A stretch of DNA of 64,000 nucleotides from Taxillus chinensis (lineage: Eukaryota; Streptophyta; Magnoliopsida; Santalales; Loranthaceae), in assembly GCA_023512835.1 (NCBI GenBank), contig CM042090.1, positions 56,655,865-56,719,864 on the forward strand. The letters run 5' to 3'. A model generated the notes under the pieces. It did no database searches, had not been told where the DNA came from, and saw nothing but the letters and a program-made list of their open reading frames with translations. The position numbers were made by a program, and so were the translations under genes. Positions 807 through 59,927 of this stretch are shown one piece after another; positions within the stretch are counted from its first letter, which is position 1; the number at the start of each line of letters is the position of its first letter.

Positions 807-808
807 AG

Positions 809-820
809 TGGTATCAGAGC
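809..820 (+). other. primer-binding site (initiator Met tRNA type)
   Basis: TGGTATCAGAGC follows the LTR end after two bases. This is the standard plant copia minus-strand primer site, complementary to the 3' end of initiator methionine tRNA. Confidence 0.95.
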
Positions 821-869
821 AAGTTCTACCTGCTCGTAGAGATCCCTCACTCCCTCTCAACTTAACAAT

Positions 870-3108: not shown

Positions 3109-3113
3109 GTTGA

Positions 3114-4520: not shown

Positions 4521-4525
4521 GTTGA

Positions 4526-7500: not shown

Positions 7501-7963
7501 GATACTCTGATGCCGACTTCGCTGGATGTCGCATCGACAGGAAGAGCACAAGTGGTACGTGTCAGTTTCTTGGAAATAGATTAATCTCATGGTTTAGTAA
7601 GAAGCAGAATTCCGTATCAACCTCTACTGCTGAGGCGGAATATATAGCTGCTGGGAGTTGCTGCGCACAGCTATTCTGGATGCAAAGTCAACTTACTGAC
7701 TACGGTTTCAACATGTCATCTATTCCACTCTACTGCGACAACACTAGTGCAATTGCTATCAGTAACAATCCTGTCATGCATCCTAAGACGAAACATATTG
7801 AGGTCAGGCATCATTTCATTCGCGATCATGTTCTTAAAAAGCACATATCCCTGGAACATGTTACTACTGAAGATCAATCAGGGATATACTTACAAAGCCC
7901 CTACCTGATGTAAGATTTTCTGAACTTCTTCTTAAATTAGGTATGCATGACTTTTCTGCATAG
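4526..7963 (+). pseudogene. copia pol of element A (protease, integrase, RT, RNase H)
   Basis: The domains run in order. Protease near 4650 reads WILDSRCSRHMTGD, so the catalytic DSG is DSR. The GAG-pre-integrase HHCC region lies near 5036-5170. The integrase core has its first Asp near 5244 and the last Glu near 5540, but the middle Asp is Gly (RSGHGTEF, near 5432). Reverse transcriptase runs from about 6450 (LVPRP, then YVDDIIFGST near 7017). RNase H has YSDADFAGC near 7502 and TAEAEYIA. In-frame stops fall at 6165, 6330, 6435, 6906 and 7381. A frameshift near 7875 precedes the conserved tail, which ends at the TAG at 7961. The family copies and integrates the element; this copy is inactive several times over. 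Confidence 0.92.
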
Positions 7964-9727: not shown

Positions 9728-12435
9728 ATGGCATCCCAAGATCTCTATGGTGTTGTTCCTGGCCATCTTGTCGATTGGTCCGGAATCTCTGATCCTCCAG
9801 CATGGCTCCACGAGGTTCGCTAGCTACTCGAGCATAGCAACCTTTTCGCGCTTGTTTCTTCCCCGGCCAATCTTCTAGTGTCGGACGTCCTGGCCTTCCA
9901 TCATCACTCCACCTCCACTGAGGAGTTTATCCTTTCTGTGGTTCGAGGGGAAACTATCAAGATCACACCTCAGGTGATCCGGGATGTTTTCAACCTTCCT
10001 GTCGGCGATGACATCCGACCAAACGCTGCTGGCATGGCTGCTTCCATGGGGTGTCCTAATAAGGTGAAGGAGTACAAAATGAAGTCTTTCCATGGTCCTC
10101 ACCACTATATGGCCACCATACTCAGCCGGTGTCTTCTGGCTCGCTCCACGGCTCTCGACTTGGTTTCGTACGATCTCCTGCTGGCGATGTATGCGGTTTT
10201 TGAGTTACTGCCACTTGACTGGGGCAACTTTCTCTTCTGAGTGTTGCGGAATGGGAAACGGAACTCGTCTTTTGGACGGATTCTGTCCCAAATCTTCCGG
10301 CATCTTCACCCCGCGCACTTCCAGGGTGAACTGGTGATTCCCTTCCCAGCGTCCTACTACTTCCGCCATTTTACTGCCGACGGGACCCTCACCGTTCGCT
10401 TCAGAACAGCAAGCGAGTTCTGTTGGTGAACCTGTTGCCAGCTCGGGCCACGAAGTTAGTTCTGCTCTCCGGTCAGTTCACTCCCGCATTCGGTTTGTTG
10501 CCACTCCGGCACGCTCCCGCGGTTCGCTGCACAACATTCGGGCTGACCCGTCTACTGCTGCAGGGCCCTCTCAGCCGCCCTTCCATGAGGTTACCACATC
10601 CGCCTCTCTTGCTGATGTCCCTGCCTCTCTTCCTGCTGTTGTTGCTACTGCTGCTCCTAATGCTGCTGCTGATGCTCCCGCACCCATCTCTCCAGTCACA
10701 GCGGCTGTTGCTGCTGTTCTTCCGGACCTTCCATCTTCTCTTGCGGAAGCCTCTCCCGCTCACTCTCCGGCCCTCCAGGACTATCTCGACCATCTCTCCA
10801 CCGACATACTGAATGACTGCTGGTTGCGCTTCAGCCTCGCCATTACTGCTGACATCCCAGAACCTACCCTCCGGGTGTTTTATGCTCAACACACCCAGAC
10901 CCTGGAGGAATTGCTTACTTGGAACTGCTACCACGGCTTTGTGATGCCATCGCTCCTCAAGGCTGCACCTCCTGCTGCTGCCTCTTCCAGTCATACCCAT
11001 GACGCACGGACACCTACTCCTGCTGAGGCTGGACCCTCTTATCCTGCGGATATCCCTATCATTGACCTCTCCGGTCAAAGTGGATCTGCCGCACCTCCTC
11101 CTGCTGCTGCTGTACAACCACCGTCCTCTCCTGCTGCCGCCGACTCTGCCCTGCCCACACCTGCCCCTCTTCATGCGGGCGAGTCTTCGAAAGCTCCCGC
11201 CTTTGGTCTTGGGCGCGCCTCTTTTGCCACGATTTTATCTGAGGCTGCTTTCTCCGCCCAACTCGATCGCCTTGCCGAAGACAGTCGTCTTCAGACCCAG
11301 GCCCTTTCCGACCATGTCCGGGCCATGGGTGCCGAGTTTCTTTCTGCCTTCTCCTCTACCTCTCTCTCCATGGATCAGAAGCTAGAGCGGCTTGCCGCGT
11401 CTTTCTCTGACTTGTCCACCTCCATTGCGGACTTAACACAAGTCGTGGCCAATCCCTCCCGCTCTCACCGGTCTGCCAAACCGGGGGAGAAATCATCTGA
11501 TCCTTCCCCTCTTTCCACTACTGGCGTTGCCTCTCGCAAACGGTCTGCACCTGCTCTTCCTCCGGGCTTTCCAGTGCCTAAACGCAGCCGTTTCTCCACT
11601 GGCCAGACCAGCTCTCCCACTCTTGTTGTTCCATCTGGTGCCAGCTCCTTCCTCCCATCATACGCGGAATTGCATCCGGATGATGCTAATGGGAGCATTC
11701 TTGCTGCGGCCAAGGCCTATGCCTTCTCCACTGCCGAGCGCCGATGTGTGTCTGCCTCGTCCCCCTTCGAACCTCAAGACATCCGGACCATACTGTTTGA
11801 GGAGGGACAATTTTCCACTGACGACATCGATAACTATGCTCTGGCGGTAAAGATGGAGTTGAGGCTATTCCCCTCTTTACTTGAGGAAGGCCTTGATTTT
11901 GATGTTCTTCCTTGCTGGGTTGAAAACCAGTTTCTCTGCTGTGGACGTTATTCTATCCTACATCAATGGTACAGCAGAGAACAGCCGACCATGGACCTCT
12001 CTGTCCATCGTTTTCATCCCCTTTCGGGTCGACTCCCCACATTTCATGCTGACTGTTTTCCTGATCAAAGAGAAGAAAATCTTGGTTCTGAATTCTCATC
12101 AGGTTGTTGACCGCCCGATTAGAAAGAATCAAATGAGGAGTCTCATTCAAACCTTGTCGGATGCAATCAGACAGAGTTCTCTCTACGAAGACTTGAATCT
12201 ACTGCCTCTTGGTCAGGATGAAGTACTCATGGGGACGATCCGAAACAAGAAGAATGTGCCCCAGCAACCCGATGGAAACAGTTGTGGAGCCTTTGTCTGC
12301 TACTTCTTGAAATTTGTTATCTCCTTCGATGATGACTGGAAAAATATCATCAAGTTCTCCAAGAAGCAGACAATGACACTATGAGAGCATGCAGCAAGGA
12401 TGATCTTCAAATATAGTAAGCCGTATGTACCATAA
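9728..12435 (+). pseudogene. third ORF of element A: plant-transposon-like N-domain + Ulp1 protease (broken)
   Basis: Colinear with the intact 911-codon ORF of element C from MASQ to the C-terminal KPYVP. Breaks include a stop near 9822, a TGA at 10238, a deletion and frame change near 10410, a one-base insertion near 11935 and a TGA near 12382. The Ulp1-like end keeps the His (DSPHFML, near 12030) and PQQPDGNSCGAF with Gln and Cys (near 12260-12290). The expected Asp of the LPDSHQ motif is Asn here (LNSHQ). Ulp1/SENP enzymes process or remove SUMO-type modifiers; this copy could not. It sits after pol and just before the polypurine tract, the env-like position of SIRE elements. Confidence 0.88.
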
Positions 12436-12559
12436 TTTATATCTGTATTAAGGCTTAATGTATTCCTGTTATAACTGAGTGGAAATGTTCTCTTTAATCC
12501 TTACCTCTGTGTTATTTCTTGCTGCCTTACCGGATCAGATTACAAAGGGTTTGGCATAT

Positions 12560-12575
12560 CCATATTGGGGGAGAC
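12560..12575 (+). other. polypurine tract of element A
   Basis: A CATATTGGGGGAGAC-type run directly precedes the 3' LTR. Element C has the same arrangement (complement of ATCTCCCCTAATATG at 41486-41500). It primes plus-strand DNA synthesis in this family. Confidence 0.75.
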
Positions 12576-13883
12576 TTTTGGATCAAATCGAGAATTTGGA
12601 TAATGCGGAACAAACCCTATGTAATTTGACTCGAGATGTTTCATGTTTACCATTAAGTCTGTGCAGATGAGTTAACTCTAAATCCAGACCTACTCATGTG
12701 AGGACAAAGCTAAGGACAGGATACATAATCCTGATCCGGATCATCATGAGTGTTGTCATTCACTTGGTATATAACCAAGTCATCATCCGGAGTAAGGACC
12801 CTTCATGCCGATTAAACACTTGACAAAACGACTAGGAACCTGCGTCTAACACTCAACTAGATTATATCAATTAATGCGGAGTAAGTTCCTGAGTCTACAT
12901 CTTGCACGGAGTAAAAGAAACTTGTGAGAGAGAAAGAATCGAAGTTGCCACTCCAACCGGACTAAGGAAAAGAAGACACGGACGAAGAAATCCGAGTCTG
13001 TTATTCGACCGGAGTAAGGGCAATTGTTGCGGAGTAAGGACATCAAATGCGGAATAAGGAATCCAAACCATTACTCATGCGGAGTAAGGAAGCACTGATG
13101 CGGAGTAAGCTCTCCGAACCACTACTCATGCGGAGTAAGGAAGCGCTGACACGGAATAAGGATTCCAGGACTTCATTCATACGGAGTAAGCAATCACTGA
13201 TACGGAGTAAGGATCCGAGCTTCGTTTATGCGGAGTAAGGAACCTTGCAACGGATCAAGAAGACGCTGCTTCATCTCTCTAAGCCGCAATTAATGCTAGC
13301 AGCTCGCTACGTCCCGATGTAAGACAAACTCATTGAATACCTAAATTGTCTGACACGTGGAACACACGGAGATGTGGATGCAGTTTCAAATGCAATTGGA
13401 ATCAAGCAAAGAATTCATTACAACTTATGCTTCCAATATTTCGAGCTCCACATCCGCAGCAGTTAAAGCTTCAACATTTTCCGATGAAGAACTTCAATGC
13501 TCCACACTGCTCGAAAAATGCAGTTCCAAGATAGATTTCTAGGATGTCTATATATATGCCTAAAGCAATATAAATTAAAGAGAGCGTGCTTACTTGTAAA
13601 ATATACACTCATAAGCGTATATCTTGTAAAGAGCCAAACACAGAGATTCATTGCCAAGTGTGTGTAACTATAACAGAGTGTTGTGTTGTAATCAGCTAAA
13701 ACGTTGTTTTGCTTTGTTGTAATTATCTTCAGATAATAAAGCAACATACTTCCACTACCTGGTTAATCTTCCGCACCTGATTTTATCCGTTTAACCAAAG
13801 TGAGTGTCTAAGCCATTAAGAGAGAGAAAGAATTTTCAAAAAGCCTATTCACCCCCCCCCCTTTAGGCTCTCCGGGACCAACA
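12576..13883 (+). repeat. 3' LTR of element A
   Basis: It starts TTTTGGATCAAATC (TGTTGG in related copies) and ends CCGGGACCAACA. U3 holds the hairpin ACTTGGT-ATATA-ACCAAGT (12762-12780) and a CGGAGTAAGG minisatellite (about 12785-13245). A TATA-like run sits near 13547. Its last 808 bp match the 5' LTR with only scattered changes, indicating moderate age. Confidence 0.9.
12785..13245 (+). repeat. CGGAGTAAGG minisatellite in LTR U3
   Basis: About 15 copies of an ATGCGGAGTAAGGA-like core with variable spacers. Present in the LTRs of A, C and the solo LTR at 3114-4520; absent from the older LTR of element B. Confidence 0.88.
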
Positions 13884-14114
13884 ATGAGGTTGTTCCCTCC
13901 TCTATACGAGGACAATTATATTATTGATGTTCTGTCGTATTGGTATGAGAGCTATCTTCCTGAAGTCGCTCACATTCGGACCTTCATCGACGGAACTGCT
14001 AAGAACAACAAACCATGGAAAAATCTCACAACTATTCTCATTCCGTACCGGATCAATGGCCCGCATTTCATGCTTACTGTATTTTTAATGGAATCAAAGA
14101 AGGTTCTTCTAGTT

Positions 14115-16800: not shown

Positions 16801-17299
16801 TAGTTGATTCTCATCAGATCGTTGAATGCCAAGTGAAGAAGAATCAATTGGAACCTTTAATTCGAGTTCTATCAGATGCAGTAAGACAAAGCATGCTTTA
16901 TGAAGAAATGGGCCAACCACCCTCGACTCCTAATAAAAAGCTAATTGTGGCGATCCAGGAGCAAGAAAATTGTGCCTCAACAGCCTGAAGGAGATAGTTG
17001 TGGAGCTTTTGTCTGCTTCTTCATCAAGTCCTTCATGAAGGTTAATGAAAACTCAAACAATAATGTGAATTTCACAATGGAACAGATGATGGAGCTTCGA
17101 GAGCAAGCAACAACAATGATTTTCAAGTACAGTGAGTCGTATGTTCCATAAGTTAATCATCTGTACTAAAGCTGAAATTATGTATTTGTTGATGATTTAG
17201 TGAAAAGTGAACTTATCTTTATCTCTGTGTATGTATCTTGCTATCTCACTAACCAAATCAGATTACAAAGGGTTTTGGCATCTCCATATTGGGAGAGAT

Positions 17300-32746: not shown

Positions 32747-33034
32747 TCATCTAGCTCGATGAGGACCGGGGGGTAGATTGAGAGCGGTGCGGAGGATGTT
32801 GGGGGTGATGACTATGGATTCACCCCGGATGGAGTCGGGGGTGCATCGGATGCGCCGGTAGAACTCGGTGATATCGTCGATAAGGAGATCGACGGGAGTA
32901 GAGACGAGGTTCAGGAGGTGGCTGGCTTCCAGAAGTGGACGAAGCTCCAGAAACCATGCCGAAGGATTGGAAATAGCGTTCCAGTCGACCAGATGGCCTG
33001 GATTAACGCCGGAAAGAGAGGTCTTGGGTGTCAT
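32747..33034 (-). pseudogene. relic of the third ORF, N-terminal domain only
   Basis: 95 residues starting MTPKTSLSGV. The words PGHLVDW, then AW-LELRPLLE, L-LVS, and finally a VRG/ITP-type pair (here IRGES and ITPNILR) align with residues 1-95 of the element C ORF. Identity is much lower than between A and C. The frame ends at 32747 and the Ulp1 part is missing. It shows that the ORF is older than the two well-kept copies. Confidence 0.75.
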
Positions 33035-34170
33035 CGGGGATGAATGCAGAGAAGGGTAAGGAGCTTTAGGGTTTGAGAAGAGAAGAGAGATTGTGAAATT
33101 TGAGAGTGATAAATCGCTCTTTGCGTGAAGGCTTAAGATATATATGGTGGGTCAGTGGATGTCGGCGGGTCTAGGGATTAAGTGAAATGAACAGTGAACC
33201 GCCTTACAATCTAATGTCATTAGCCTTGATAGTTGCACGCCTCTAAATAAAGAGATGACGTGGAGGCAGCATAACTAAGCATTTAAGACAGCTGTTTGCC
33301 TTCTTCTGGAAAATTATCCATCTCGAGACTTGCAATCATTCCTCCTCAAAAACATGCGATGTAAGATAAGACTTTGTTAATCGCTATTTGAGAGTTCCAA
33401 GAGTCAGGAGGAAGTGAATCGACTATCATCCGGACTAAATATAATCCGTAGAAGAGTATTCGGATGAAAAACAAAATGTGGTAAGAGAGAATATATTTCT
33501 TTGCTGTCTTGAAGTCGAAGAGAAACGAAGTACCACAACACTTAAAATCCGAGACTTCAGACAAGATATATATCAGTGAAAATGCAAAGTGAATCTGAAC
33601 CTGTAGCTTCACAAAGATAAACTAAAAAGAACAGAAAGCTTTACAGGTTGGGATTAGTACGGATATAAACAGATACGGAAAGTCAGCATAATCCAAACTA
33701 ATGAAAAATCAGAACTTATGCGTTAGAAATGAATGCGAGAGACGAGTTAATGATCATTTCTACTGAGATCAAGGCAAATGTTAGATAAGAAACACATAAG
33801 TTCATATTGGTCAACATAGCGAAACCTTCACGCTGAACGTTGTAGCTAAGATGAATTAAATGTATATGGTTTGCCCAAATTAAGATTCCTGAGTGAGAAT
33901 GGATTAAAGAACACATGCTAATAGCAATCAATTGATTATTATATTAAAAGGCACAGTTGAAGAAACAAAAACATTTAATCATGCCACAATTCCGATTCAA
34001 TAATGCTTGCCTAGTCAGATCTAGAAGTGAGAATTATAGGGTAGAGCATCTGAGACATATCAGGGGGTTATTACGGAAGTAATAAATGAAGCTTTGGCTC
34101 CCCCTTAGATCGTGCGATCCTCTCGAGAAAGACTCCCCCTCAGATAGATAGCCAGGAAAGAGTCATTATG
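33035..34170 (-). repeat. relic of the spacer upstream of the third ORF
   Basis: In reverse orientation this matches 44362-45570 and 8480-9727, including the CTTCCTCCTGACTCTTGG and CTGGC-ATCTATCTGAGGGGGAG words. A TATA-like ATATATAT sits at 33138-33145, 104 bp upstream of the relic ORF. A short + strand scrap near 34240-34310 (MAASM-KEYKVKSF) also resembles the third ORF. Confidence 0.7.
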
Positions 34171-34334
34171 AGTGAAGAACCGATAGATGCACCAGAGCCG
34201 ATGGCATTTGGGCCACTCCCTCTCATCAGCGCCCAGACCCAGAGCTGATGGCAGCTTCCATGTGCTACACCTTTAAAGGGAAGGAGTACAAGGTGAAGTC
34301 CTTCTAGGGTAACGTCGAACCCATAGGGACAATT

Positions 34335-37648: not shown

Positions 37649-38228
37649 TGTTGGATCCCATTTTGTCCGGGTTGGGCATACATATTCATTTTAGCTTTAT
37701 ATTATTTCATATTTGTCATTCACTTTGTATAGATAAATAAAAAGGTGTGACTTTTAATTTAAAGAGTGTGACGTTAATTATATATATAAAACACAAAAAC
37801 AAAAACAAAAAACAAAAACAAAAAACAAAAAAATAAAAAAAGAGAGCATAAAATAAGAAAATTCTAAAAAAAAAATTCTTAGAGCCTGTTGTATGTCTAC
37901 ATTTTTATTTTTCAAGTAGCATTTTCTGCACAAAAAAAAACCAACGGTCACGACACTGTTTCAACGGTCATGACACTGTTCCAACGGTCACGGCACTATT
38001 TCCAATGGCTATATTCTCCACCAACGGCCACTTTTCCACCCTATAAATACACCCTCATTCCTCTCCTTCACTCACACAATTTTCACTCTACCACTCTTCA
38101 AACTCTCTTCTTCAATTCTCCACATTTTTTTTGCCTCTTATGCGAAAATGGCTGACTAGGCGAAGTGCGTGCTAACGGTGCTAGTGCTGGCGTGTACTAT
38201 TGTGTATCCTATGCTGGGCAGCGCTTTC
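37649..38228 (+). repeat. gypsy-type LTR fragment, left arm (continues at 48413)
   Basis: It starts TGTTGGATCCCATTTTGTCC, contains (CAAAAA)n near 37795-37835, three CAACGGTCACGACACTGTT-like repeats (37944-38000) and a TATA box (CTATAAATACA near 38041). It then enters a small ORF. Element C interrupts it at 38228 and it resumes at 48413-48650. It is the inverted counterpart of 49510-50307. Confidence 0.8.
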
Positions 38229-39549
38229 TGTTGGTCCCAGAGAGCCTAGAGGGGGGTGAATATGCTCTTTGAAAATTCTTTCTCTCTCTTAATGGCTAGA
38301 CACTCACTCTGGTTAAACAGATAAAATCAGTGCGGAAGATTAACCAGGTAGTGGAAGTATGTTGTTTTATTATCTGAAGATAATTACAACAAAGCAAAAC
38401 AAAGCTTTAGGCGATTACAACACAACACTCTGTTTATGGTTACACACACTAGGCTGTAAATCTCTGTATGAGCTATTTCACATGATACACGCTTGTAAGT
38501 ATATGAGTACAAGTAAGCGCGCGCGTATATTTCTAGCTTTTTACATTGCTATATATATAGACATCCTAGGAATCTATCTTGGAACTGCATTCTCCGAACA
38601 GTGTAAAGCATTGAAGTTCTTCATCGGAAAATGCTGAAGCTTTAACTGCTGCGGATGTGGAGCTCGAGATATTGGAAGCATAAGTTGTAATGAATTCTTG
38701 CTTGATTCCAATTGCATTTGAGACCGCGTCCACATCTCCGCATGATCCACGTGTAAGGTAATTTAGGTTTTCAACGGGTTTGTTTTACATCGGGACGAAG
38801 CGAGCAGATTGCAATAAAAGCGACTTGGAAATGATGAAGCAGCGTCTTCTTAGTCCGTCATAAGGTTCCTTACTCCGTATCACCGAAGCTCGGATCCTTA
38901 CTCCGTGTCAGCGGTTGCTTACTCCGTATGAATGAAGTCCTGGAATCCTTGTTCCGTGTCAGCGCCTCTTACTCTGCATGAAGTATAGGCTCGGAGAGCT
39001 TATTCCGCATCAACGCTTCCTTACTCTGCATAAAGTAGGTACGGAATGCTTACTCCGCATCAGTGAATGTCACGCCCCGGATTTCCAACCCGAGGAAACC
39101 GGTACGTGACTCCCCTTTTTACCCACACGGAGGGCAAAGGGGTTAGGATACAAACCAAGAACCGAACATTTTAAACATTCACAACACATTCAAGAAAAAT
39201 AAAGTCCATCAAGCAGTCCACAAACCAAATCAGTCTTTAATACAAAGTCTTCTTTTCAATCCATCCCCATTGGGGTTACATCAGTTCCCATAATAAAATA
39301 ACATAAACAATAAAATAAATAAGGTCTTCCACCTTGGGGTCCCACCTAACGACTGTAGGTTCCTGTAAAGAAAACAACATGGTAGGAGGGGTGAGCAACC
39401 ACAGCTCAGTAGGGATCATGTCTCCCCAACCCATCCCATGCACCTAATATCTACATGCCTTGTGTACAAGTCTTGTGTCGTGATACAATTATTCCACCAG
39501 ATATAGTTACGGCTATAACAAAGAAACACAATCATACATGGGCTGGTAC

Positions 39550-39765
39550 ATAAACACTCCCGGGCTTCCACAACACCGGGTTTCAAGAACAGTCCCGGCT
39601 TCCACAACCACCGGGTCCCACAAAACAGTCCCGGGCTTCCACACCACCGGGTTCCACAAAACGGTCCCGGGCTTCCACGGCCACCGGGTTCCACAAAAAA
39701 GTCCCAGGCTTCCACAACCACCGGGTTCCACAAAACAGTCCCGGCTTCCACAACACCGGGTGTAC
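39550..39765. repeat. ~38-bp tandem array (CCGGGTTCCACAAAACAGTC)
   Basis: About six units of CCCGGGCTTCCACAACCA followed by CCGGGTTCCACAAAACAGT. Open frames on both strands here are artefacts of the repeat. Confidence 0.85.
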
Positions 39766-39889
39766 AAGCAAACACGCAACACACATGGCCATACAGGCAT
39801 AACATCAAACACTTAGTATGCTTAGTCACACAGAATAACATCGAACACTTAGCATGCATATATCCACAAGCTCATAAACCCACCACACA

Positions 39890-40095
39890 GACATAATCTA
39901 ACACACCTGGACGTGCGTGGCCTCACAGGCATTACCTCAAACACATAACATGCACGACCTCACAGGCATTACCTCAAACACATAACATGCACACCTCACC
40001 AGGCATTACCTCAAACACATAACATGCACAGCTCACAGGCATTACCTCAAACACATAACATGCACGGCCTCACGGGCATTACGTCAAACACTTCA
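39890..40095. repeat. ~37-bp tandem array (CAGGCATTACCTCAAACAC)
   Basis: About five units of GGCCTCACAGGCATTACC followed by TCAAACACATAACATGCAC, within the same solo LTR. Confidence 0.85.
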
Positions 40096-41485
40096 AGGCA
40101 TATATACATATATCCAAACAACACGCCATTGAAGGCCAACATTCATATAGGAGATCACACCTATATGAATTTACATATAAATAGTATGATAACAAGGACA
40201 ATATCCAACGGGTAATTCACCACAGGGCCTAACCCCGGATCGGGTATAAGAAAACAGAACCCCTACCTTAAAGAAGATCCTCCTTGCTCCCGCGTTAGAT
40301 GCCGTCCTCCCCACGCAAGATGCTCCTGGCAAAACCGGCCAGCTTCTCCCCCTTTCCCTCTCTCTAGCTCTCTCTCTCCCACGACGGCCGCAGTGGGCCG
40401 AAAAACCCCTAACCCTAGAACAAGGAGTCTCCTCATCCTTATATGGGCCTCCCACTATCAAAACGACGTAGTTTTGATTAAGTGAAACCCAGGATCAAAA
40501 CGACGTAGTTTTGATCACACAAGTTAGCACCTTTCCGCACCCATATGGGCCAAAATACTCAGAATTTCAACATGGTCCTTTGGAGAAAGTTCCTTAGAAT
40601 GTCAAAACCAAGGGAACCATGCAAAAATATGCCTGCACGCCAATTTGCACGTGAATTCCCCAATTCACGTGCAACTCCATATGCACTCCAAATGCTCTCA
40701 AACTTCACCCCTAGCCTCCTTGCATCATTTAGAAGACAACCACACTTGCACGTGAATTGGACCCATATCACGTGCACCTCACATACATGTCCATTTGGCC
40801 TGAAACTTCTGTGGTAGATAGAGGACATCATTCTAAGCATCTTTCCTTTTGCACGTGAATTCATTGGAGTCCATTTACTAGGTCAAAATCTAGAAAAACT
40901 CTACTCAGGAGGCAAAACTGACTAACTCAAGGTACGGGTCCTTACAGTGAATCCTTACTCCGCATGAGTAATGGTTCGGATTCCTTATTCCGCATTTGTT
41001 ATCCTTACTTGGCAACAATTGTCCTTACTCGGCAACAATTGTCCTTACTCCATTCGAATGAGACTCGGACTTCTTAGTCCGTGTCTTCTTTTTCTTTAGT
41101 CCAGTGGAGTGACAATTTCGATTCTGTCTCTGCAACAAGTCTCTCTTATTTCGTGCGAGTGATAGACTTGGAATATTATTCCGTATCAATTGACTTAGCC
41201 AAATTGAGAGTTAGACACGGGTTCCTTAAGTCGTTTTGTCAAGTATTTAGTCCGCACGAAAAGTCCTTACTCCGGATGAAGACTCGGTTATATACGAAGT
41301 GAATGACGATACTCATAATGATCCGGATCAGGATTATGTATCCTGTTCTTAGCTTTGTTCTCACACGAGTAGGTCCGAATTAGAGTTATATCATCTGCAT
41401 AGACTTAATAGTAAACATGAAACATCTCGAATCAAATTACATAGGGTTTGACCTGCATTATCCAAATTCTAGGTTTGATCCAACA

Positions 41486-41625
41486 ATCTCCCCTAATATG
41501 GATATGCCAAACCCTTTGTAATCTGATCCGGTAGGGCAACAAGAAATAACATAGAGGTAAGGATAAAAGAGAATAGTTCCAGTAAGTTGCAGCAGGAATA
41601 CATTAAGCCTCAGTACAAATATAAA
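41486..41625 (-). other. polypurine tract and 3' untranslated region of element C
   Basis: On the minus strand the third ORF is followed by about 125 bp of non-coding sequence and an ATATTAGGGGAGAT polypurine run that abuts the LTR start. Confidence 0.7.
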
Positions 41626-44361
41626 TTATGGTACATATGGCTTACTATATTTGAAGATTATCCTTGCTGCATGCTCTCGTAGTATCATTGTCTGCTTCTT
41701 GGTGAACTTGATGATATTTTTCCAGTTATCATCAAAGGAGATAACAGATTTCAGGAAGTAGCAGACAAAGGCTCCACAGCTGTTTCCATCGGGTTGTTGG
41801 GGCACATTCTTCTTGTTCCGGATCGCCCCCATAAGTACTTCATCCTGACCAAGATGCTGTAAATCCAAGTCTTCGTAGAGAGATTTCTGTCTGATTGCAT
41901 CAGACAAGGTTCGAACGAGACTTCGTATTTGATTCTTTCTAATCTGGCGGTCAACAACCTGATGAGAATCCGGAAGCAAGATTTTATTCTCCTTGATCAG
42001 AAAAACAGTCATCATGAAATGTGGAGAGTTGACCCGGAAAGGGATGAAGACGATGGACAGAGAGGTCCATGGTCGGCTGTTTTCTGCTGTACCATAGATG
42101 TAGGATAGAATGACGTCCACAGCAGGAAACTGTTCTTCAACCCAGCATAGAAGAACATCAAAATCAAGGCCTTCCTCAAGTAAAGAGGGGAATAGCCTCA
42201 ACTCCATCTTTACCGCCAGAGCATAGTTGTCGATGTCGTCAGTGGAAAATTGTCCCTCCTCAGACAGTATGGTCTGGATGTCTTGACGTTCAAAGGGGGA
42301 CGAGGCAGACACACATCGGCGCTCGGCAGTGGAGGAGGCATAGGCCTTGGCCGCAGCAAGAATGCTCCCATCAACATCATCCGGATGCAATTCCGCGTAT
42401 GATGGGAGGAAGGTGATGGCACCAGATGGAACAGCAGGAGTGGGAGAGCTGGTCTGGCCAGTGGAGAAATGACTGCATTTAGGCACCGGAAGGCCCGTAG
42501 GAAGAGCAGGTGCAGACCGTTTGCGAGAGGCAACGCCAGCAGTGGAAGGAGAGGAAGGATCAGATGATTTCTCCTCCGGTTTGGCAGATCGGCGAGAGCG
42601 GGAGGGACTGGCCACGACTTGCGTTAAGTCCGCAATGGAGGTAGACAAGTCAGAGAAAGACGTGGCAAGCCGCTCAAGCTTCTGATCCATGGAGAGAGAG
42701 GTAGAGGAGAAGGCAGAAAGAAGCTCGGCACCCATGGCCTGGACATGGTCGGAAAGGTCCTGGGTCTGAAGACGACTGTCCTTAGCAAGGCGATCGAGTT
42801 GGGCGGAGAAAGCAACCTCAGATAAAATCGTGGCAAAAGAGGCGCGCCCAAGACCAAAGGCGGGAGCTTTCGAGGATTTGCCTGCATGAAGAGGGGCAGG
42901 TGTGGGCAAGGCAGAGTCGGCGGCAGCAGGAGAGGACGGTGGTTGTACAGCAGTAGCAGCAGGAGGTGCGGCAGATCCACTTTGAACGGAGAGGTCAATG
43001 GTAGGGATATCCGCAGGATAGGAGGGACCAGCCTCAGCAGGGACAGGTGGCCATGCGTCATGGGCAGGTCTGGAAGAGGCAGCAGCAGGAGGGGCAGCAT
43101 GAAGGAGAGATGACGTTATAAAGCCGTGGTAGCGGTTCCAAGTAAGCATTTCCTCCGGGGTCTTGGTGTGTTGAATGTAAAATACCCGGAAGGTAGGTTC
43201 TGGGATGCCAACAGAGATGGCGAGGCTAAAACGCAGCCAGCAATCATTCAGTAGGTCGGCAGGAAGATGGTCGAGGTAGTCCTGGAGGTCTGGAGAGTGA
43301 GCAGGAGAGGCTTCCGTAGGAGAAGAAGGGAGGTCCGGAAGAACAGCAGCAATAGCCGCTGTGACCGGAGAGATGGGTGCGGGAGCATCAGCAGCAGCAT
43401 CAGGAACAGCAGCAGCAGCAGCAGGAAGAGAGGCAGGGACATCAGCAGGAGAGGCGGAGGTGGTAACCTCAAGGAAGTACGGCTGAGAAGGCCCTGCAAC
43501 AGTAGACGGGTCAGCCCGAACGCTGTGGAGTGAACTGCGGGAGCGTGCCGGAGCGGCAATGGACCGGATGCGGGAGTGGATGGACCGGGGAGCAGAACTA
43601 ACTTCGTGACCCGAGCTTGCAACGGGTTCACCAATGGAACTAGCTTGCTGTTCTGAAGCAGCAGCAAGGGCACGGGAGACTAGAGGGCGGTGAACGGTGA
43701 GGGTCCCGTTGGCAGTAAGATGGCGGAAGTAGTAGGTCGCCGGAAAGGGAATCACCAGTTCACCCTGGAAGTGCGCGGGGTGAAGATGCTGAAAAATTTG
43801 GGACAGAATCCGTCTGAAGGACGAGTTCCGTTTCCCATTCCGCATCACCCGGAAGAGAAAGTTGCCCCAGTCAAGTGGCAGTGACTCAAAAACCGCGTAC
43901 ATCGCCAGCAGGAGATCGTACGGAACCGAGTCGAGAGCCGTGGAGCGAGCCAGAAGACACCGGCTGAGTATGGTGGCCATACATCGGTGAGGACCATGGA
44001 AAGACGTCATTTTGTACTCCTTCACCTTATTAGGACAACCCATGGAAGCAGCCATGGCAGCAGGGTTCGGCTGAATGTCATCGCTGGCATGAAGGTTGAA
44101 GATGTCCCGGATCACCCGAGGTGTGATCTTGATAGGTTCACCTCGAACCACAAAAAAGATATACTCCTCAGTGGAGGTAGAGTGCTGATAGAAGGCCAGG
44201 ACATCCGACACTAGAAGATCAGCCAGGGCAGAGACAAGCGCGAAGAGGTTGCTGTGCTCGAGTAGCTGGCGAACATCGTGAAGCCATGCTGGAGGATCAG
44301 AGATTCCGGACCAATCGACGAGATGGCCAGGAACAACACGATAGAGAGCTTGGGATGCCAT
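41626..44361 (-). CDS. third ORF of SIRE-like element: plant-transposon-like domain + Ulp1/C48 protease, 911 aa
   Basis: An uninterrupted 911-codon ORF. Residues 1-250 (PGHLVDWSGI, VVRGEPIKITPRVIRDIFNL, SFHGPHR, PLDWGNFLF) resemble the 'putative plant transposon protein' domain found in many plant elements (my assignment; not searched). Residues 250-690 are Ala/Pro/Ser-rich and probably disordered, apart from a short coiled-coil-like stretch. Residues 700-911 look like an Ulp1/SENP cysteine protease: His781 (NSPHFMM), Asp798 (LPDSHQ), Gln856 and Cys862 (VPQQPDGNSCGAF), with the family's His-Asp spacing and Gln six before Cys; the usual Trp after His is Phe. Such proteases cleave SUMO precursors or conjugates, usually in the nucleus. 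No signal peptide is evident, which argues against an envelope protein. It lies directly before the polypurine tract. It is the only full-length copy here. Confidence 0.88.
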   Translation of the reverse strand: MASQALYRVVPGHLVDWSGISDPPAWLHDVRQLLEHSNLFALVSALADLLVSDVLAFYQHSTSTEEYIFFVVRGEPIKITPRVIRDIFNLHASDDIQPNPAAMAASMGCPNKVKEYKMTSFHGPHRCMATILSRCLLARSTALDSVPYDLLLAMYAVFESLPLDWGNFLFRVMRNGKRNSSFRRILSQIFQHLHPAHFQGELVIPFPATYYFRHLTANGTLTVHRPLVSRALAAASEQQASSIGEPVASSGHEVSSAPRSIHSRIRSIAAPARSRSSLHSVRADPSTVAGPSQPYFLEVTTSASPADVPASLPAAAAAVPDAAADAPAPISPVTAAIAAVLPDLPSSPTEASPAHSPDLQDYLDHLPADLLNDCWLRFSLAISVGIPEPTFRVFYIQHTKTPEEMLTWNRYHGFITSSLLHAAPPAAASSRPAHDAWPPVPAEAGPSYPADIPTIDLSVQSGSAAPPAATAVQPPSSPAAADSALPTPAPLHAGKSSKAPAFGLGRASFATILSEVAFSAQLDRLAKDSRLQTQDLSDHVQAMGAELLSAFSSTSLSMDQKLERLATSFSDLSTSIADLTQVVASPSRSRRSAKPEEKSSDPSSPSTAGVASRKRSAPALPTGLPVPKCSHFSTGQTSSPTPAVPSGAITFLPSYAELHPDDVDGSILAAAKAYASSTAERRCVSASSPFERQDIQTILSEEGQFSTDDIDNYALAVKMELRLFPSLLEEGLDFDVLLCWVEEQFPAVDVILSYIYGTAENSRPWTSLSIVFIPFRVNSPHFMMTVFLIKENKILLPDSHQVVDRQIRKNQIRSLVRTLSDAIRQKSLYEDLDLQHLGQDEVLMGAIRNKKNVPQQPDGNSCGAFVCYFLKSVISFDDNWKNIIKFTKKQTMILREHAARIIFKYSKPYVP

Positions 44362-45570
44362 TGAGAGTGAAAGATTGAGGGAGAAGGAGAGAAGATCTTT
44401 GCAGGAAAAGGTGCGGCGTGGGTTTAGGGTTTGGAGAGTTAGTAGTGATAACCTCGGTCGACGCTGATGGTGCGGTATAAATAGGATCCTTTCCGTGGAA
44501 GCAAGTGGGTCTCGAGTTTAAGCTAAATGAAAAGTGAGCCACCCGACTTCCTTATGTCATTAGAAGTGATGGATTAGCGCCGTCGAATAGACCTATGATG
44601 TGGCGGCCGTGCGAACCATTCAAAGATGACAGCTGTAGGCATACTTCCGGATTTTGAAAAGATAAATTACCGGGCTCAAGGAATGCATTAAATGAACCAT
44701 CATTATCCCTCCTCAAAAATAAGCGATGTAAGATAATTACTTGGTTTATCGCGAATTGAGAATTCCAAGAGTCAGGAGGAAATAAACCGACTTTCATCCG
44801 GAGAAGGATAATCCGTATAAAGAACATCCGGATGAGACTGATTAACTATATCCGTATAAATAGAGTGCTGAGTAGAGATGATTCCTTTGCTGTCTTGACG
44901 CCGAGAAAGTGTGAAGTACTACAACACCTCAGAAATCCGAGACATCAGACAAGATATAGCGATGAATGGCAAAGAGAATCTGAACCTGTGACTTAACAAA
45001 TAGAAGCTTTGAAGAGCAAGTCTCATCAGGTTCAGGTTAGTCCGGATAAACAATATTAGAGAATAACACACAATCCGAACTAAGAAGAAACAGAACTTAT
45101 GCATAAAAAGTTACGTGCTAGACATATACATAAGAAATGAAATCCATCATACTGAAATCAATGTATGTGTGAGATAATTGACACATAAATCCAATAGGTC
45201 AACATAGCCAATCCTTCATACTGAGAATGAAAGCAAAGATTAATTAAATTTGTATGACGTCATCCATCAGAGAATGCATGAGTGAGAATGGGAAGAAGAG
45301 CACATGATGTATGATGTTACAACTGATTGTCATGCCTAAAATGCTAGGAAGAGGAAGATAACAGCCAAGAAATCCACAATTCCGATTCAACAATGCAAAT
45401 CCAATCAGCTTTATGAGTGAGAGTTACAGGGCAGAACATCCGAGACATATCAGAGAGGCATTACTTAATAATAAGCATTCTCTCGCCCTGTAGTCATGCC
45501 TTTTGCTGAAACAGGGGGCCTTACTTAATATTCAATGAAGTATTCTCTCCCCCTGAGATCAGCGAGTGAT
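44362..45570 (-). other. spacer/leader upstream of the third ORF in element C
   Basis: Conserved with 8500-9727 and 33035-34170. It contains a frame at 44827-44552 with GLFPPDSWNSQF and polypurine-like runs near 45510-45557. On the far side it joins gag sequence at about 45570 through a deletion junction that removed the rest of gag and all of pol. Confidence 0.75.
44476..44483 (-). promoter_or_regulatory. putative TATA box of the third ORF (element C)
   Basis: TATTTATA on the minus strand, 115 bp upstream of the ATG at 44361, as in element A. A separate transcript for this ORF is inferred. Confidence 0.45.
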
Positions 45571-47018
45571 TTTTAGCTCTTAGGTCGTGATACCAAACCT
45601 CCCCGCTTCAGTAGTCAGCTATGTCCTTTTCAAGTTTAGAAACAGTAAGTTCTAGGCATTTAGTCTGACCACTCATATTTTGATACATTTGAGTAATTAT
45701 TAATCTCTCATTCTTTTCATCATCACATTCCTTAGTAAGAGATTTTATTTTACGCAAGAGCTTAGAGATAGAAGGTACCTCAGCATTTGCCATGAGGCAG
45801 ACGTTCGCCTTTTCCGTTGGTTCGTCGTCTGAAGATTCATCTTCTTCTTCTGAACCACTATTGTATTTTGAGACGAACGCCTTCCTCTTCGTCTTGCTGT
45901 TGTCTGAGGTGGAGCGTCAGGGTTTAACCTTGTCATCCTTGTCGGCCGTCTTGGGTTTGGATCTAAAGTCCTTGGCCCAATGAGCAGGCTTCCCGCAATT
46001 GTAGCAGTCTTGGGATGTCGACTCCGACCGCTCCTTCCTTCTTGAGGATGAGGAAGAGCCTCTTCTGAATCCTTTTCTGCTTTTCTGCAGGAATCGTGTG
46101 AAGGATTTCACCAGAAGTGCTATTTCTTCTTCCATGTCCGAGTCAGAGTTTTCTGACTCTTCCGTATCATCCTCCGTCAGCATGCTTGGTCCAGCCGTAG
46201 CCTTAAGAGCTACCCCTTTTTTTCCGAGCCATTTTCTCGTCTCGGTCAGTGTATTTGAATCTGACCTCATGAGTTCGTAGCTCTCCATATAGCTCTTCAA
46301 GGGGAGCATACTGCCAGTTGTCTTTGGATTGCATCTGGAGCTGCTTGGAGTAATAGCGATCCGGCAAGGAACGAAAGAACTTGTCATTTATTTGGAACTG
46401 AGTGTAGTGCTCGTTGACAGTTTTCAATTCCAGGATGAGCTTGCCGAATCGCCGATAGATGCTCTCCAGGGATTCGCCAGGTTTGTGGTTGAAGCTCTCA
46501 AAGTTCTGTCTGAGCGCGCAAATGACGTTCTGCATCTGGGACTGACTTCCTTCATATAGAATAGTCAATTTGTCCCACACAGCTTTTGCTGTCGTGCAGC
46601 CCTGGACGTTTGTGAAGGCCTCTAAATCTAAGGACGATGTCACGTAAGCTAGAGCCTTTTCACTGGCATATTGCCAGGCTCTTTCATCGTGAGTGAGTTC
46701 AGCATCAGTCTTTGGCCTCCTAACCCCATTTTCTCCGATGGTCATCGGAATGGGAAGCTCCTGATGAAGACAAGGCCACATCAGATGATCATGACAAGTC
46801 ATGAACATCTTCATGCGAGCTTTCCACTGGGAGAAAAGCTCTGGTGTGAACTTTGGCGGTTTGCTTAGTGTGTAGCCTGAACTCCGTGGTTGAGGAGCAG
46901 CGGCAGCAGCAGGTTGTGGTGGATCAACATTTTCACTGCTGCTACGATGGGGAAGGGGCTCTTGAGCTCCCCCGGAGTTGAGGTGGGTGTTGAATAGCAT
47001 GCTGCTTTCTTCGGCCAT
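45571..47018 (-). pseudogene. gag of element C (truncated, frameshifted)
   Basis: It starts at the ATG at 47018 (MAEESSMLFN) and is open to 46203, where a run AAAAAAAGGGG is two bases shorter than in element A and shifts the frame. It continues in another frame through the Ser-rich part and the knuckle CYNCGKPAHWAKDF (about 45988-46010), whose last Cys is Phe. It ends at the deletion junction near 45570, about halfway through gag. The Gag core (KPGESLESIYRRFGKL) is intact. It could not form a normal Gag without a frame change. Confidence 0.88.
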
Positions 47019-47065
47019 TGTTGAGTTGAGAGGGAGTGAGGGATCTCTATGAGCAGGTAGAACTT

Positions 47066-47077
47066 GCTCTGATACCA
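47066..47077 (-). other. primer-binding site of element C
   Basis: TGGTATCAGAGC on the minus strand, two bases from the 5' LTR end, as in A and F. Confidence 0.95.
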
Positions 47078-47079
47078 CT

Positions 47080-48407
47080 TGTTGGTCCCGGAGAACCTAG
47101 AGGGGGGTGAATATGCTCTTTGAAAATTCTTTCTCTCTCTTAATGGCTAGACACTCACTCTAGTTAAACAGATAAAATCAGTGCAGAAGATTAACCAGGT
47201 AGTGGAAGTATGTTGTTTTATTATCTGAAGATAATTACAACAAAGCAAAACAGCGTTTTAACTGATTACAACACAACACTCTGTTTATGGTTACACACAC
47301 TAGGCTGTAAATCTCTGTATGAGCTATTTCACACGATACACGCTTGTAAGTATATGAGTACAAGTAAGCGCGCGCGTATATTTCTAGCTTTTTACATTGC
47401 TATATATATAGACATCCTAGGAATCTATCTTGGAACTGCATTCTCCGAACAGTGTAAAGCATTGAAGTTCTTCATCGGAAAATGCTGAAGCTTTAACTGC
47501 TGCGGATGTGGAGCTCGTGATATTAGAAGCATAAGTTGTAATGAATTCTTGCTTGATTCCAATTGCATTTGAGATCGCGTCCACATCTCCGCATGATCCA
47601 CGTGTAAGGTAATTTAGGTTTTCAACGGGTTTGTTTTACATCGGGACGAAGCGAGCAGATTGCAATAAAAGCGACTTGGAAATGATGAAGCAGCGTCTTT
47701 TTAGTCCGTCATAAGGTTCCTCACTCCGTATCAACGAAGCTCGGATCCTTACTCCGTGTCAGTGGTTGCTTACTCCGTATGAATGAAGTCCTGGAATCCT
47801 TGTTCCGTGTCAGCGCCTCTTACTCCGCATGAAGTATAGGCTCGGAGAGCTTATTCCGCATCAACGCTTCCTTACTCAGCATAAAGTAGGTACTGAATGC
47901 TTACTCCGCATCAGTGAATCCTTACTCCACATGAGTAATGGTTCAGATTCCTTATTCCGCATTTGTTGTCCTTACTCCGCAACAATTGTCCTTACTCCGT
48001 TCGAATGAGACTCGGACTTCTTTGTCCGTGTCTTCTTTTTCGATTCTCTCTCCACAACAAGTCTCTCTTATTCCGTGTGAGTGATAGACTTGGAATCTTA
48101 TTCCGTATTAATTGACTTAGCCAAATTGAGAGTTAGACACGGGTTCCTTAAGTCGTTTTGTCAAGTATTTAGTCCGCATGAAAAGTCCTTACTCCGGATG
48201 AAGACTCGGTTATATACGAAGTGAATGACGATACTCATGATGATCCGGATCAGGATTATGTATCCTGTTCTTAGCTTTGTTCTCACACGAGTAGGTCTGG
48301 ATTAGAGTTATATCATCTGCACAGACTTAATAGTAAACATGAAACATCTCGAATCAAATTACATAGGGTTTGACCCGCATTATCCAAATTCTAGGTTTGA
48401 TCCAACA
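47080..48407 (-). repeat. 5' LTR of element C
   Basis: 1328 bp with TG...CA ends. It contains the CCTTACTCCG array (about 47710-48010) and a TATA-like run near 47403. On the + strand its right end is GATCCAACA followed by the ctttc TSD. Confidence 0.93.
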
Positions 48408-48412
48408 CTTTC

Positions 48413-49509: not shown

Positions 49510-50307
49510 CTACATATGTAATTTTTTTTTTGGAATCCTATGTCGGCCGTGACTGATCGTTGGGACAGTTTTATTTATTTATTTATATATTTAATATATA
49601 TATATATGTATATATACACACGTATAACATAAACATGCAAACTGCAATTTATTTAGGACTCCGTGGTGGAGATATTACGTGATTCAACCTAAAATATATT
49701 CTGTGGCCATTGCCATTACATACAAGAGGATGATGAAAGCAAGGAGGGGTATGAAAGCGCCGCCCAGCATAGGATACACAATAGTACACGTCAGCACTAG
49801 CACCGTTAGCACATACTTCGCCCAATCAGCCATTTTCGCAGAAGAGGAGGCAAAAAACGTAGAGAATTGAAGAGTGGTAGAGTGGAAATTGTGTGAGTGA
49901 AGGAGATGAATGAGGGTGTATTTATAGGGTGGAAAAGTGGCCGTTGGTGGAGAATATAGCCGTTGTAAATAGTGCCGTGATCGTAGGAACAGTGCCATGA
50001 CCGTTGGTTTTTTTTTTTGCAGAAAATGCCGTTTAAAAAATAAAAATGTAGACATACAACAAGCTCTAGGAAATTTTTTATTTTTAGAATTTTCTTATTT
50101 TATGCTCTTTTTTTATTTTGTTATTTTGTTATTTGTTATTTGTTTTTTTTGTTTTTGTGTTTTATATATATAATTAACATCACACCCTTTAAATTAATAG
50201 TCACACGTTTTTATTTATCTATACAAAGTGAATGACAAATATGGAATAATATAAAGCTAAAATGAATATGTATATCCAACCTGGACAAAATGGGGTCCAA
50301 CAACTGC
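49510..50307 (-). repeat. gypsy-type LTR fragment, right arm (minus strand)
   Basis: On the minus strand it starts TGTTGGACCCCATTTTGTCC and repeats the left arm: A/C-rich tract, CAACGGTCA repeats, TATA box, 49-codon ORF. Upstream of it on the minus strand is AAAGAGGGGCAGT, a polypurine tract, so it is the 3' LTR of the element whose tandem-repeat region lies at 50309-51244. Its own 3' end was not found. Confidence 0.8.
49684..49833 (-). CDS. 49-aa two-helix hydrophobic protein encoded in an LTR
   Basis: It starts MADWAKYVLTV and ends TEYILG. Two hydrophobic segments (about residues 6-24 and 27-43) with few charges predict a small membrane hairpin. The ATG is 86 bp downstream of a TATA box (TATAAATA on the minus strand, 49919-49926), so a short LTR-driven transcript could encode it. 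The MADW start and the short double-helix plan recall the plant DUF3339 small proteins, but it is shorter and I would not assign it. The left copy is nearly identical apart from one stop. Function unknown; whether it is translated is untested. Confidence 0.45.
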   Translation of the reverse strand: MADWAKYVLTVLVLTCTIVYPMLGGAFIPLLAFIILLYVMAMATEYILG

Positions 50308-50308
50308 C

Positions 50309-51244: not shown

Positions 51245-51289
51245 TGTTGGAAACACAGGATTTGATGAAGCTGCCAACTAATAGTCTAA

Positions 51290-59771: not shown

Positions 59772-59927
59772 AAATAGATCCGGACTGTCCCGGGAAAACT
59801 AAAAAGAAACGAGCTAAAACCAGTCCGTTCAGGAAGAAGCTTAAACAAAGGAAACCCGGACCACCCCGAGTTGGAATGACAGTAGTCGTATGATGATGCA
59901 TTATGATGCTTGTTACTATAATGATTG
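59772..59927 (-). repeat. resumed tandem-repeat region between D and F
   Basis: About 110 bp match the 171-bp repeat family of 50465-51230 (CCGGACTGTCCCGGGAAAAC, GTTCAGGAAGAAGCTTAAAC). A short unrelated stretch with ATGATG words follows, up to the LTR of F. This places D and F in the same older element. Confidence 0.75.

What the first reader, a model, noticed from the sequence alone, without database searches (positions are those of the whole stretch)
41626..44361. A SUMO-protease-like (Ulp1/C48) ORF carried by a SIRE-like copia retrotransposon in the env-like position
Seen: an open 911-codon frame between the spacer and the polypurine tract, inside LTRs with a ctttc TSD. Its C-terminus has His781, Asp798, Gln856 and Cys862 in Ulp1 order and spacing; its N-terminus resembles the plant-transposon-protein domain. 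Known: SIRE-type copia elements carry an env-like ORF after pol, and Ulp1-like genes are known as cargo of some plant Mutator-type DNA transposons. Inference: this lineage replaced or gained its third ORF by capture of a transposon gene. The protein may counter SUMO-linked silencing or process element proteins.
Basis: partly seen in the sequence, partly recalled or inferred. Interest (0 to 1): 0.87.

Follow-up and report, generated by a model that had tools for sequence, protein, structure and literature searches.

The report
Retrotransposon carrying a SUMO-protease-like gene
A family of plant jumping genes carries, where relatives carry an unexplained 'envelope-like' gene, a gene that looks like a protein-cutting enzyme of the SUMO-protease family, and its sequence seems to have been kept by selection, so the element may use it, perhaps against the plant's silencing.

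Summary
A 911-codon ORF (minus strand, 41626-44361) ends in a significant Ulp1/C48 domain (PF02902, E 3.4e-9 for its last 234 residues) with His781, Asp798, Gln856 and Cys862. It lies between a spacer and the polypurine tract of one LTR element (38229-48407, TSD GAAAG); a paralogous empty site holds a single GAAAG. Corrections: this copy has no pol, its gag is interrupted, and its 3' LTR carries a 1.88-kb insertion. A second copy (1-13883) has gag, integrase, RT and then a decayed C48 ORF. Two divergent fragments keep either end of the ORF in the same place; one still has all four catalytic residues. dN/dS of the C48 part is 0.31 and 0.20. So this looks like a lasting gene of a Sirevirus-type copia family, not a nested DNA transposon or a recent capture. 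A 2022 screen saw no domain gain in plant Copia, and seven open-text searches showed no C48 in a plant copia element. SUMO removal that eases silencing is inferred, not shown. All evidence comes from one 64-kb window; no outside relative was found or examined.

The parts
38229..48407 (-). Focal LTR element (whole insertion unit)
   Evidence: TG..CA ends, GAAAG on both sides; paralogous empty site with one GAAAG
48408..48412 (.). Target-site duplication next to the 5' LTR (GAAAG on -)
38224..38228 (.). Target-site duplication next to the 3' LTR
47080..48407 (-). 5' LTR (1328 bp), with 11 CGGA[AG]TAAG repeats
47066..47077 (-). Primer binding site TGGTATCAGAGC; junction CA/AGTGG matches the published Sirevirus variant
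   Evidence: PMC2829016 passages
45917..47078 (-). gag remnant: Retrotran_gag_2 and zinc knuckle in two different frames (interrupted)
45547..45554 (-). Upstream PPT octamer AGGGGGAG, just after the pol deletion junction
44362..45540 (-). Non-coding spacer, about 69% alike in the divergent copy 4; differs less than silent sites of the ORF
44476..44483 (-). TATA-like TATTTATA about 115 bp before the ORF start (possible internal promoter; inferred)
41626..44361 (-). Third ORF, 911 aa
43822..44202 (-). N-terminal stretch weakly like PF20167 (residues 54-180)
   Evidence: 22.5 bits, E 1.1e-4, cut-off 45
42292..43692 (-). Ala/Ser/Pro-rich linker (residues 224-690), with a basic patch RKR at 613
41704..42081 (-). 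Peptidase_C48 (Ulp1) match, residues 761-886; H781 (42019-42021), D798 (41968-41970), Q856 (41794-41796), C862 (41776-41778)
41495..41530 (-). Left arm of the inverted repeat that borders the PPT; right arm 41428-41468 in the LTR
41488..41494 (-). Terminal PPT AGGGGAG, followed by the AT/TG attachment site
38229..41485 (-). 3' LTR, interrupted by the nested insertion
39068..40946 (.). 1879-bp TG..CA insertion (probably a solo LTR), TSD TTCAC
1..13883 (+). Copy 2: 5' LTR tail 1-807, gag, integrase region 4581-6167, RT 6438-7382, AGGGGGAG at 8489 and 8538, decayed third ORF 9728-12432, 3' LTR 12576-13883
13884..14111 (+). Copy 3, part of the C48 domain with its His (49% aa identity); copy 2 is inserted just before
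16806..17148 (+). Copy 3, rest of the C48 domain with Asp, Gln and Cys, ending YVP-stop; then PPT region and LTR from 17300
32774..34140 (-). Copy 4: two AGGGGGAG (34133, 34098), spacer, N-terminus of the third ORF (48% aa identity)
49658..49855 (-). Paralogous empty site of the focal insertion

Best explanation
This is a Sirevirus (SIRE)-type Ty1/copia family whose third ORF, in the env-like position, codes for a C48-family (Ulp1-like) cysteine protease joined through a long low-complexity linker to an N-terminal domain of its own. Shown: the C48 match, its four catalytic residues, its place between spacer and PPT in the family's copies, and constraint on its protein sequence. The focal copy is a defective descendant: compared with copy 2, one deletion from mid-gag to the upstream PPT removed pol, gag is interrupted, and the third ORF is still open. 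Inferred: the protein is made from a separate message started inside the spacer, enters the nucleus, and strips SUMO (or a similar modifier) from host silencing factors or from the element's own proteins. This would raise transcription or integration of the family and could act in trans for other copies.
For: C48: PF02902 E 3.4e-9 focal, 1.5e-11 copy 2, 4.4e-8 for a 64-aa piece of copy 3. The 14 PDB sequences listed for the family profile are named Ulp1, sentrin-specific protease, membrane thiol protease, Dub1 or plain 'Protease', though the best E is only 0.078. One unit: spacer, ORF, post-ORF and LTR differ alike between focal and copy 2 (91.9, 91.6, 89.3, 89.5% identity); empty site. Constraint: dN/dS of the C48 part 0.31 (95% 0.17-0.69, 166 codons, focal/copy 2) and 0.20 (0-0.34, 175 codons, focal/copy 3); N-terminus 0.47 and 0.30; middle 0.58; gag C-half as yardstick 0.41. 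Spacer: 30.6% of 919 sites differ (26.8-34.2) against 63.5% of silent sites of the ORF in the same pair. Env-like genes of Sireviruses are reported to be expressed by stop suppression or an internal promoter (PMC3414828 passages). Role: in yeast, loss of Ulp1 anchoring, of Ubc9 or of both Siz ligases raises Ty1 (copia) RNA (PMC8585004, abstract and one section).
Against: No activity, expression or substrate data. The first 65-75 of 217 profile positions are not matched. AlphaFold models were unusable (mean pLDDT 34.5 and 35.2). Yeast Ulp1 has HW where this has HF. Copy 2 has lost the Asp. dN/dS intervals of the regions overlap; polarised C-terminal changes are 7 silent/8 replacement on the focal branch and 8/13 on copy 2's, so no strong constraint shows on these terminal branches. 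The stretch from the TATA-like box to the ATG is poorly conserved between focal and copy 4 (57.7% differ). The yeast data come from loss of Ulp1, not from an added protease. In Arabidopsis the MOM1-SUMO interaction is not required for silencing (section title of PMC6084981). Copy 3 is near saturation at silent sites (dS 1.6).
Confidence: 0.45

Rival explanations
1. The C48 domain acts on the element's own proteins, as a processing protease like that of NeSL/Utopia non-LTR elements may do.
For: Ulp1-like domains occur in NeSL/Utopia proteins (PMC4640811, passages); a weak Peptidase_C5 (adenovirus endoprotease) match, E 0.0037 and below its cut-off, in copy 3.
Against: Copy 2 keeps the PF22936 region before the integrase (E 8.5e-14), the usual copia protease region (recalled), so a second processing enzyme is not needed; the ORF is separated from gag or pol by a spacer of more than 1 kb.
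Confidence: 0.14
2. The domain is a C48 fold used for binding only, or it cuts another modifier (ubiquitin, NEDD8), so SUMO is not the point.
For: The weak PDB hits include a deubiquitinase/deneddylase; the first third of the profile is not matched; Asp lost in copy 2.
Against: All four catalytic positions are kept in the focal copy and in the pieces of copy 3, about half of whose residues differ.
Confidence: 0.25
3. A Ulp1-bearing DNA transposon (Mutator type) happened to land inside a copia element.
For: Ulp1 is a known cargo of plant MULEs (PMC13317346 passages).
Against: None of the four inverted-repeat pairs found lies at the ORF borders; the ORF has the same position in front of PPT and LTR in focal, copy 2 and copy 3; spacer, ORF and LTR diverge alike; the empty site shows one unit.
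Confidence: 0.03
4. A recent transduction of a host gene into one or a few copies, without use to the element.
For: LTR elements do transduce host genes (PMC7264820, part 1 of 3 read).
Against: The ORF is in all four copies seen, down to 44-58% aa identity per piece, with dN/dS below 1.
Confidence: 0.04
5. The focal ORF has been taken over by the host (domesticated) after insertion.
For: It is open over 911 codons while gag is interrupted and pol is gone in the same copy; chance of this given LTR divergence about 0.05.
Against: 0.05 is not rare, and the estimate rests on two LTR indels; polarised C-terminal changes on the focal branch are 7 silent and 8 replacement; no expression data.
Confidence: 0.05

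Closest known systems
SIRE/Sirevirus elements with an env-like third ORF (eORF-3'F)
   Same: Copia gag-pol, long spacer, sense ORF before the PPT, CA/AGTGG junction, inverted repeat around the PPT, polyC integrase signal, AGGGGGAG copies
   Different: Published SIRE third ORFs fall in 19 groups with little or no mutual similarity and no domain common to most elements (PMC6317226 passages; this does not exclude a domain in one group); here a C48 enzyme domain is recognisable. Octamers lie before, not after, the ORF; terminal PPT is a variant; no palindromic LTR motif clusters
KIU/Vandal non-TIR MULEs and Mutator-like elements of melon, rice and grapevine with Ulp1
   Same: Plant mobile element carrying a Ulp1 domain; its exact function there is unknown (PMC13317346 passages)
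   Different: DNA transposons; here an LTR retrotransposon with no trace of MULE ends
Ginger1 transposases and NeSL/Utopia non-LTR elements with Ulp1 domains
   Same: Ulp1 domain in a mobile element (PMC2836005, PMC4640811 passages)
   Different: Reported there from animals, inside a transposase or RT protein; here a separate ORF in a plant copia element
Orchid Ty3/gypsy elements with an AlkB demethylase domain
   Same: Plant LTR element that gained an enzyme domain
   Different: Gypsy, not copia; that study reports no domain gain in plant Copia (PMC9289625 passages)

Membership tests
Peptidase C48 (Ulp1/SENP) | Profile match above the curated cut-off | tested here: met
   37.3 bits vs 20.7 focal; 45.0 copy 2; 33.7 one copy 3 piece; the other scanned copy 3 piece (76 aa) had no hit
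Peptidase C48 (Ulp1/SENP) | His, Asp, Gln, Cys in order and spacing | tested here: met
   H781, D798, Q856, C862; all in copy 3 pieces, Asp lost in copy 2
Peptidase C48 (Ulp1/SENP) | Ulp1 fold | tested here: inconclusive
   AlphaFold mean pLDDT 34.5 from 5 sequences
Peptidase C48 (Ulp1/SENP) | Cleaves SUMO or a related modifier | not testable with these tools
   needs an enzyme assay
Ty1/copia | gag, then integrase before RT | tested here: met
   copy 2: gag_pre-integrs, rve, SH3, then RVT_2; its last pol piece (7383-7910) had no Pfam hit; focal copy lacks pol
Sirevirus (SIRE) | CA/A[TG]TGG 5' LTR-PBS junction | tested here: met
   CA/AGTGG in focal and copy 2; published variant
Sirevirus (SIRE) | AGGGGGAG copies in the linker and as terminal PPT, AT/TG site | tested here: inconclusive
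   Octamers at 8489, 8538, 34098, 34133, 45547 (5 of the 7 in the window), but no terminal PPT is the exact octamer in the three junctions seen; AT/TG in focal and copy 3, changed in copy 2
Sirevirus (SIRE) | Inverted repeat bordering the terminal PPT | tested here: met
   3 of 3 junctions examined; also in almost half of classic copia elements
Sirevirus (SIRE) | polyC-rich integrase signal near the LTR end | tested here: met
   TTCACCCCCCTCTAGG in focal, similar in copy 3
Sirevirus (SIRE) | High-copy palindromic CGG-CCG motifs in LTRs | tested here: not met
   one TGATCCGGATCA in each of the two LTRs scanned; the 11 LTR repeats CGGA[AG]TAAG are not palindromes
Sirevirus (SIRE) | RT/INT phylogenetic position | not tested
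   no labelled reference set at hand
Retroviral-like envelope protein | Conserved transmembrane segment | tested here: not met
   best 19-residue hydropathy 2.08 in focal (residues 39-57), 1.66 in copy 2, 1.25 in copy 4; the stretch holds Asp
Transposase_32 (PF20167) | Match above cut-off | tested here: not met
   22.5 bits vs 45
Mutator-like element with Ulp1 | Own termini and TSD around the gene | tested here: not met
   no inverted repeats at the ORF borders among 4 pairs found

The most novel reading that the evidence does not exclude
The 'envelope-like' gene of Sireviruses is, at least in this lineage, not an envelope at all but a nuclear protease that removes SUMO from the plant's silencing machinery: a viral-style counter-defence carried by a copia retrotransposon and made from its own internal message, usable in trans by copies that have lost pol.
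Probability: 0.3. Interest if true: 0.86.

Novelty: new variant of a known kind. Interest (0 to 1): 0.66.

Why it matters
MASiVEdb states that the origin of the Sirevirus env-like gene is unknown and its function unproven (PMC3414828 passages). A third ORF with a recognisable enzyme domain, its catalytic residues and a constraint signal gives a testable biochemical activity. It would also add an LTR retrotransposon to the mobile elements (MULEs, Ginger1, NeSL/Utopia) that carry a Ulp1 domain, which points to SUMO or related modifiers as a shared target of mobile elements.

Tried and rejected
With residues 680-911: 577 candidates, no hit at E 0.01. The same database does hold plant copia proteins: 3124 hits to the integrase piece of copy 2, best identity 53% among the 120 listed, with several Asteraceae and clovers named. 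So the missing hits mean that no relative sharing 5-residue words was found, not that plants are missing. IMG/VR scans for the ORF and for the integrase gave 14 and 5 pattern matches and 0 relatives; with no copia integrase found, that collection tells nothing about plant copia.

Structure: two AlphaFold jobs gave mean pLDDT 34.5 and 35.2; not used, and no fold search was made. PDB sequence search with the whole ORF gave one hit, ATP synthase delta, E 0.035, outside the C48 part. Rfam: 0 matches at gathering scores in the window.

Domestication of the focal ORF was considered and set aside (P about 0.05). Nested DNA transposon and recent transduction were considered and rejected (see rivals). 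In one search the set 'gag N-half' aligned only 21 codons (dN/dS 1.13, interval 0.35-4.19) because I chose a wrong stretch; it is not used, and the set of two distant gags (H) had saturated silent sites and is not used either. Residues 224-234 and 721-743 are not covered by the focal/copy 2 sets, because copy 2 is frameshifted there; codons facing stops were left out. Bootstrap samples with saturated silent sites counted as 0, which lowers the lower bounds. One search was a first version of that script that stopped with an error after four of its sets.

Literature: 10 searches of the open-licence library only. Seven bear on Ulp1, C48 or SUMO protease in retrotransposons; three were on Sirevirus structure, the PF20167 name and SUMO in silencing. 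Listings were capped (20 of 113, 20 of 1,574, 15 of 310), and 13 papers were opened, in parts. Subscription papers and Repbase were not searched, so 'not described before' is limited to this.
Full report
What is there. The ORF 41626-44361 is real, 911 codons, on the minus strand. Copies of that region with the same dinucleotide make-up give at most a 327-codon open run in 1000 trials. Pfam places Peptidase_C48 at residues 761-886 with 33.8 bits for the whole protein and 37.3 bits, E 3.4e-9, for the last 234 residues. His781, Asp798, Gln856 and Cys862 are as stated. The N-terminal PF20167 match is weak: 22.5 bits against a cut-off of 45. The middle (residues 224-690) is 46% Ala, Ser and Pro, with one short basic patch.

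The element. In minus-strand order: TSD GAAAG, 5' LTR 48407-47080, PBS TGGTATCAGAGC, gag in two frames, an upstream PPT octamer at 45554-45547, a 1.2-kb spacer, the ORF, 140 bp, PPT AGGGGAG, AT/TG site, 3' LTR 41485-38229, GAAAG. The 3' LTR is split by a 1879-bp TG..CA insertion with TSD TTCAC. A paralogous stretch at 49658-49855 shows the site without the element and with one GAAAG. So the ORF travelled with the element as one unit.

No pol here. gag runs directly into the PPT region. Compared with copy 2, one deletion from inside gag to the upstream PPTs, with GCTGA at both sides, removed the rest of gag and all of pol. LTR divergence is 39 substitutions in 1322 aligned sites; with the often used 1.3e-8 per site and year (recalled) this is roughly 1 million years.

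Copies in the same window. Copy 2 (1-13883, plus strand) has gag, integrase region, RT, two AGGGGGAG, spacer, a decayed third ORF (9728-12432, stops and frameshifts) and 3' LTR. So the full order gag-pol-spacer-C48 ORF-LTR exists. Copy 3, into whose C48 domain copy 2 was inserted, has two stretches (13884-14111, 16806-17148) with 49, 44 and 58% identity in three pieces. It keeps His, Asp, Gln and Cys, ends in the same YVP-stop and is followed by PPT region and LTR. Copy 4 (34140-32774) has two octamers, the spacer and the N-terminus at 48%. Copies 3 and 4 were found through similarity to the ORF, spacer or LTR, so this is not an unbiased sample; one stretch like the LTR alone (3114-4523) says nothing about the ORF.

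One unit, under constraint. Between focal and copy 2, spacer, ORF, post-ORF and LTR are 91.9, 91.6, 89.3 and 89.5% identical. dN/dS (Nei-Gojobori, codon bootstrap), focal/copy 2: N-terminus 0.47 (0.26-0.85), middle 0.58 (0.42-0.90), C48 part 0.31 (0.17-0.69), gag C-half 0.41 (0.21-0.78). Focal/copy 3, C48 part: 0.20 (0-0.34) on 175 codons, dS 1.6. Focal/copy 4, N-terminus: 0.30 (0.09-0.51) on 82 codons. The C48 part has the lowest values, but the intervals overlap. Polarised by copy 3, C-terminal changes are 7 silent and 8 replacement on the focal branch and 8 and 13 on copy 2's, so the constraint shows in the deep comparison more than on these late branches, as expected if much of the late change came after insertion. 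The non-coding spacer differs at 30.6% of 919 sites between focal and copy 4 (block bootstrap 26.8-34.2%), while silent sites of the ORF in that pair differ at 63.5%. The spacer therefore seems to carry signals. Its last part, from a TATA-like box to the ATG, is not well conserved (57.7% of 123 sites differ), so an internal promoter is an inference from position only.

Lineage. Of the Sirevirus marks in PMC2829016 (passages), the 5' junction, the inverted repeat at the PPT and the polyC integrase signal are met. AGGGGGAG copies are present but before the ORF, with variant terminal PPTs. Palindromic LTR clusters are not met. I call it Sirevirus-type; an RT tree was not made.

Mechanism. Shown: anatomy, catalytic residues, constraint. 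Inferred: protease activity, SUMO as substrate, nuclear site, separate message. The best support for a SUMO role is from yeast: loss of Ulp1 anchoring, of Ubc9 or of both Siz ligases raises Ty1 RNA, read by its authors as decreased SUMOylation of some host factors (PMC8585004, abstract and one section); an added protease was not tested there. In Arabidopsis the SUMO ligase-like PIAL2 works with MOM1 in silencing, but MOM1-SUMO binding is not required (PMC6084981, abstract and section titles). KIU-bearing Vandal MULEs lower methylation of related copies, but the function of their Ulp1 domain is unknown (PMC13317346, passages).

Novelty. Neumann et al. found third ORFs in 74% of SIRE elements, in 19 groups with little or no mutual similarity and no conserved domain common to most elements of a lineage (PMC6317226, passages); that wording leaves room for a domain in one group. 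Alvarado-Marchena et al. saw no domain gain in plant Copia (PMC9289625, passages). Seven full-text searches of the open library, whose longer listings were capped, showed no C48 or Ulp1 in a plant copia element in the titles, abstracts and passages that I saw. The two papers and the lupin genome were seen in the listing only. I rate it a new variant of a known kind: a known element type with a known type of cargo, in a combination that I did not find in print.

Limits. The host species is unknown; no relative outside the window was found or could be examined; the genome search did not complete (10 calls); all four copies come from one 64-kb window and two of them are fragments.

Noticed in passing
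39068-40946: 1879-bp TG..CA insertion with TSD TTCAC inside the focal 3' LTR, probably a solo LTR of another family.
   Followed up: partly
3114-4523: Inverted LTR-like stretch (about 68-82% like the family's LTRs) between gag and integrase of copy 2, probably a solo LTR of a relative.
   Followed up: no
52233-53728 and 57225-58719: 1.5-kb direct repeats 97.9% alike, with a 454-aa ORF (55557-56921, minus) between them that has no Pfam match; related stretches at 34330-37472.
   Followed up: partly
14112-16805: About 2.7 kb lies between the two parts of copy 3's C48 domain, so a second insertion besides copy 2 seems to have split that copy.
   Followed up: no
50219-51277: 352-aa ORF over roughly 170-bp tandem repeats, with similar repeats near 59774.
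   Followed up: no
62221-63441: gag of another copia element (31.7% aa identity to copy 2's gag) near the window's end.
   Followed up: no
44362-45540: Non-coding spacer that differs less than silent sites of the ORF between focal and copy 4; best kept block ends in TTTTTGAGGAGG. Purpose unknown.
   Followed up: partly
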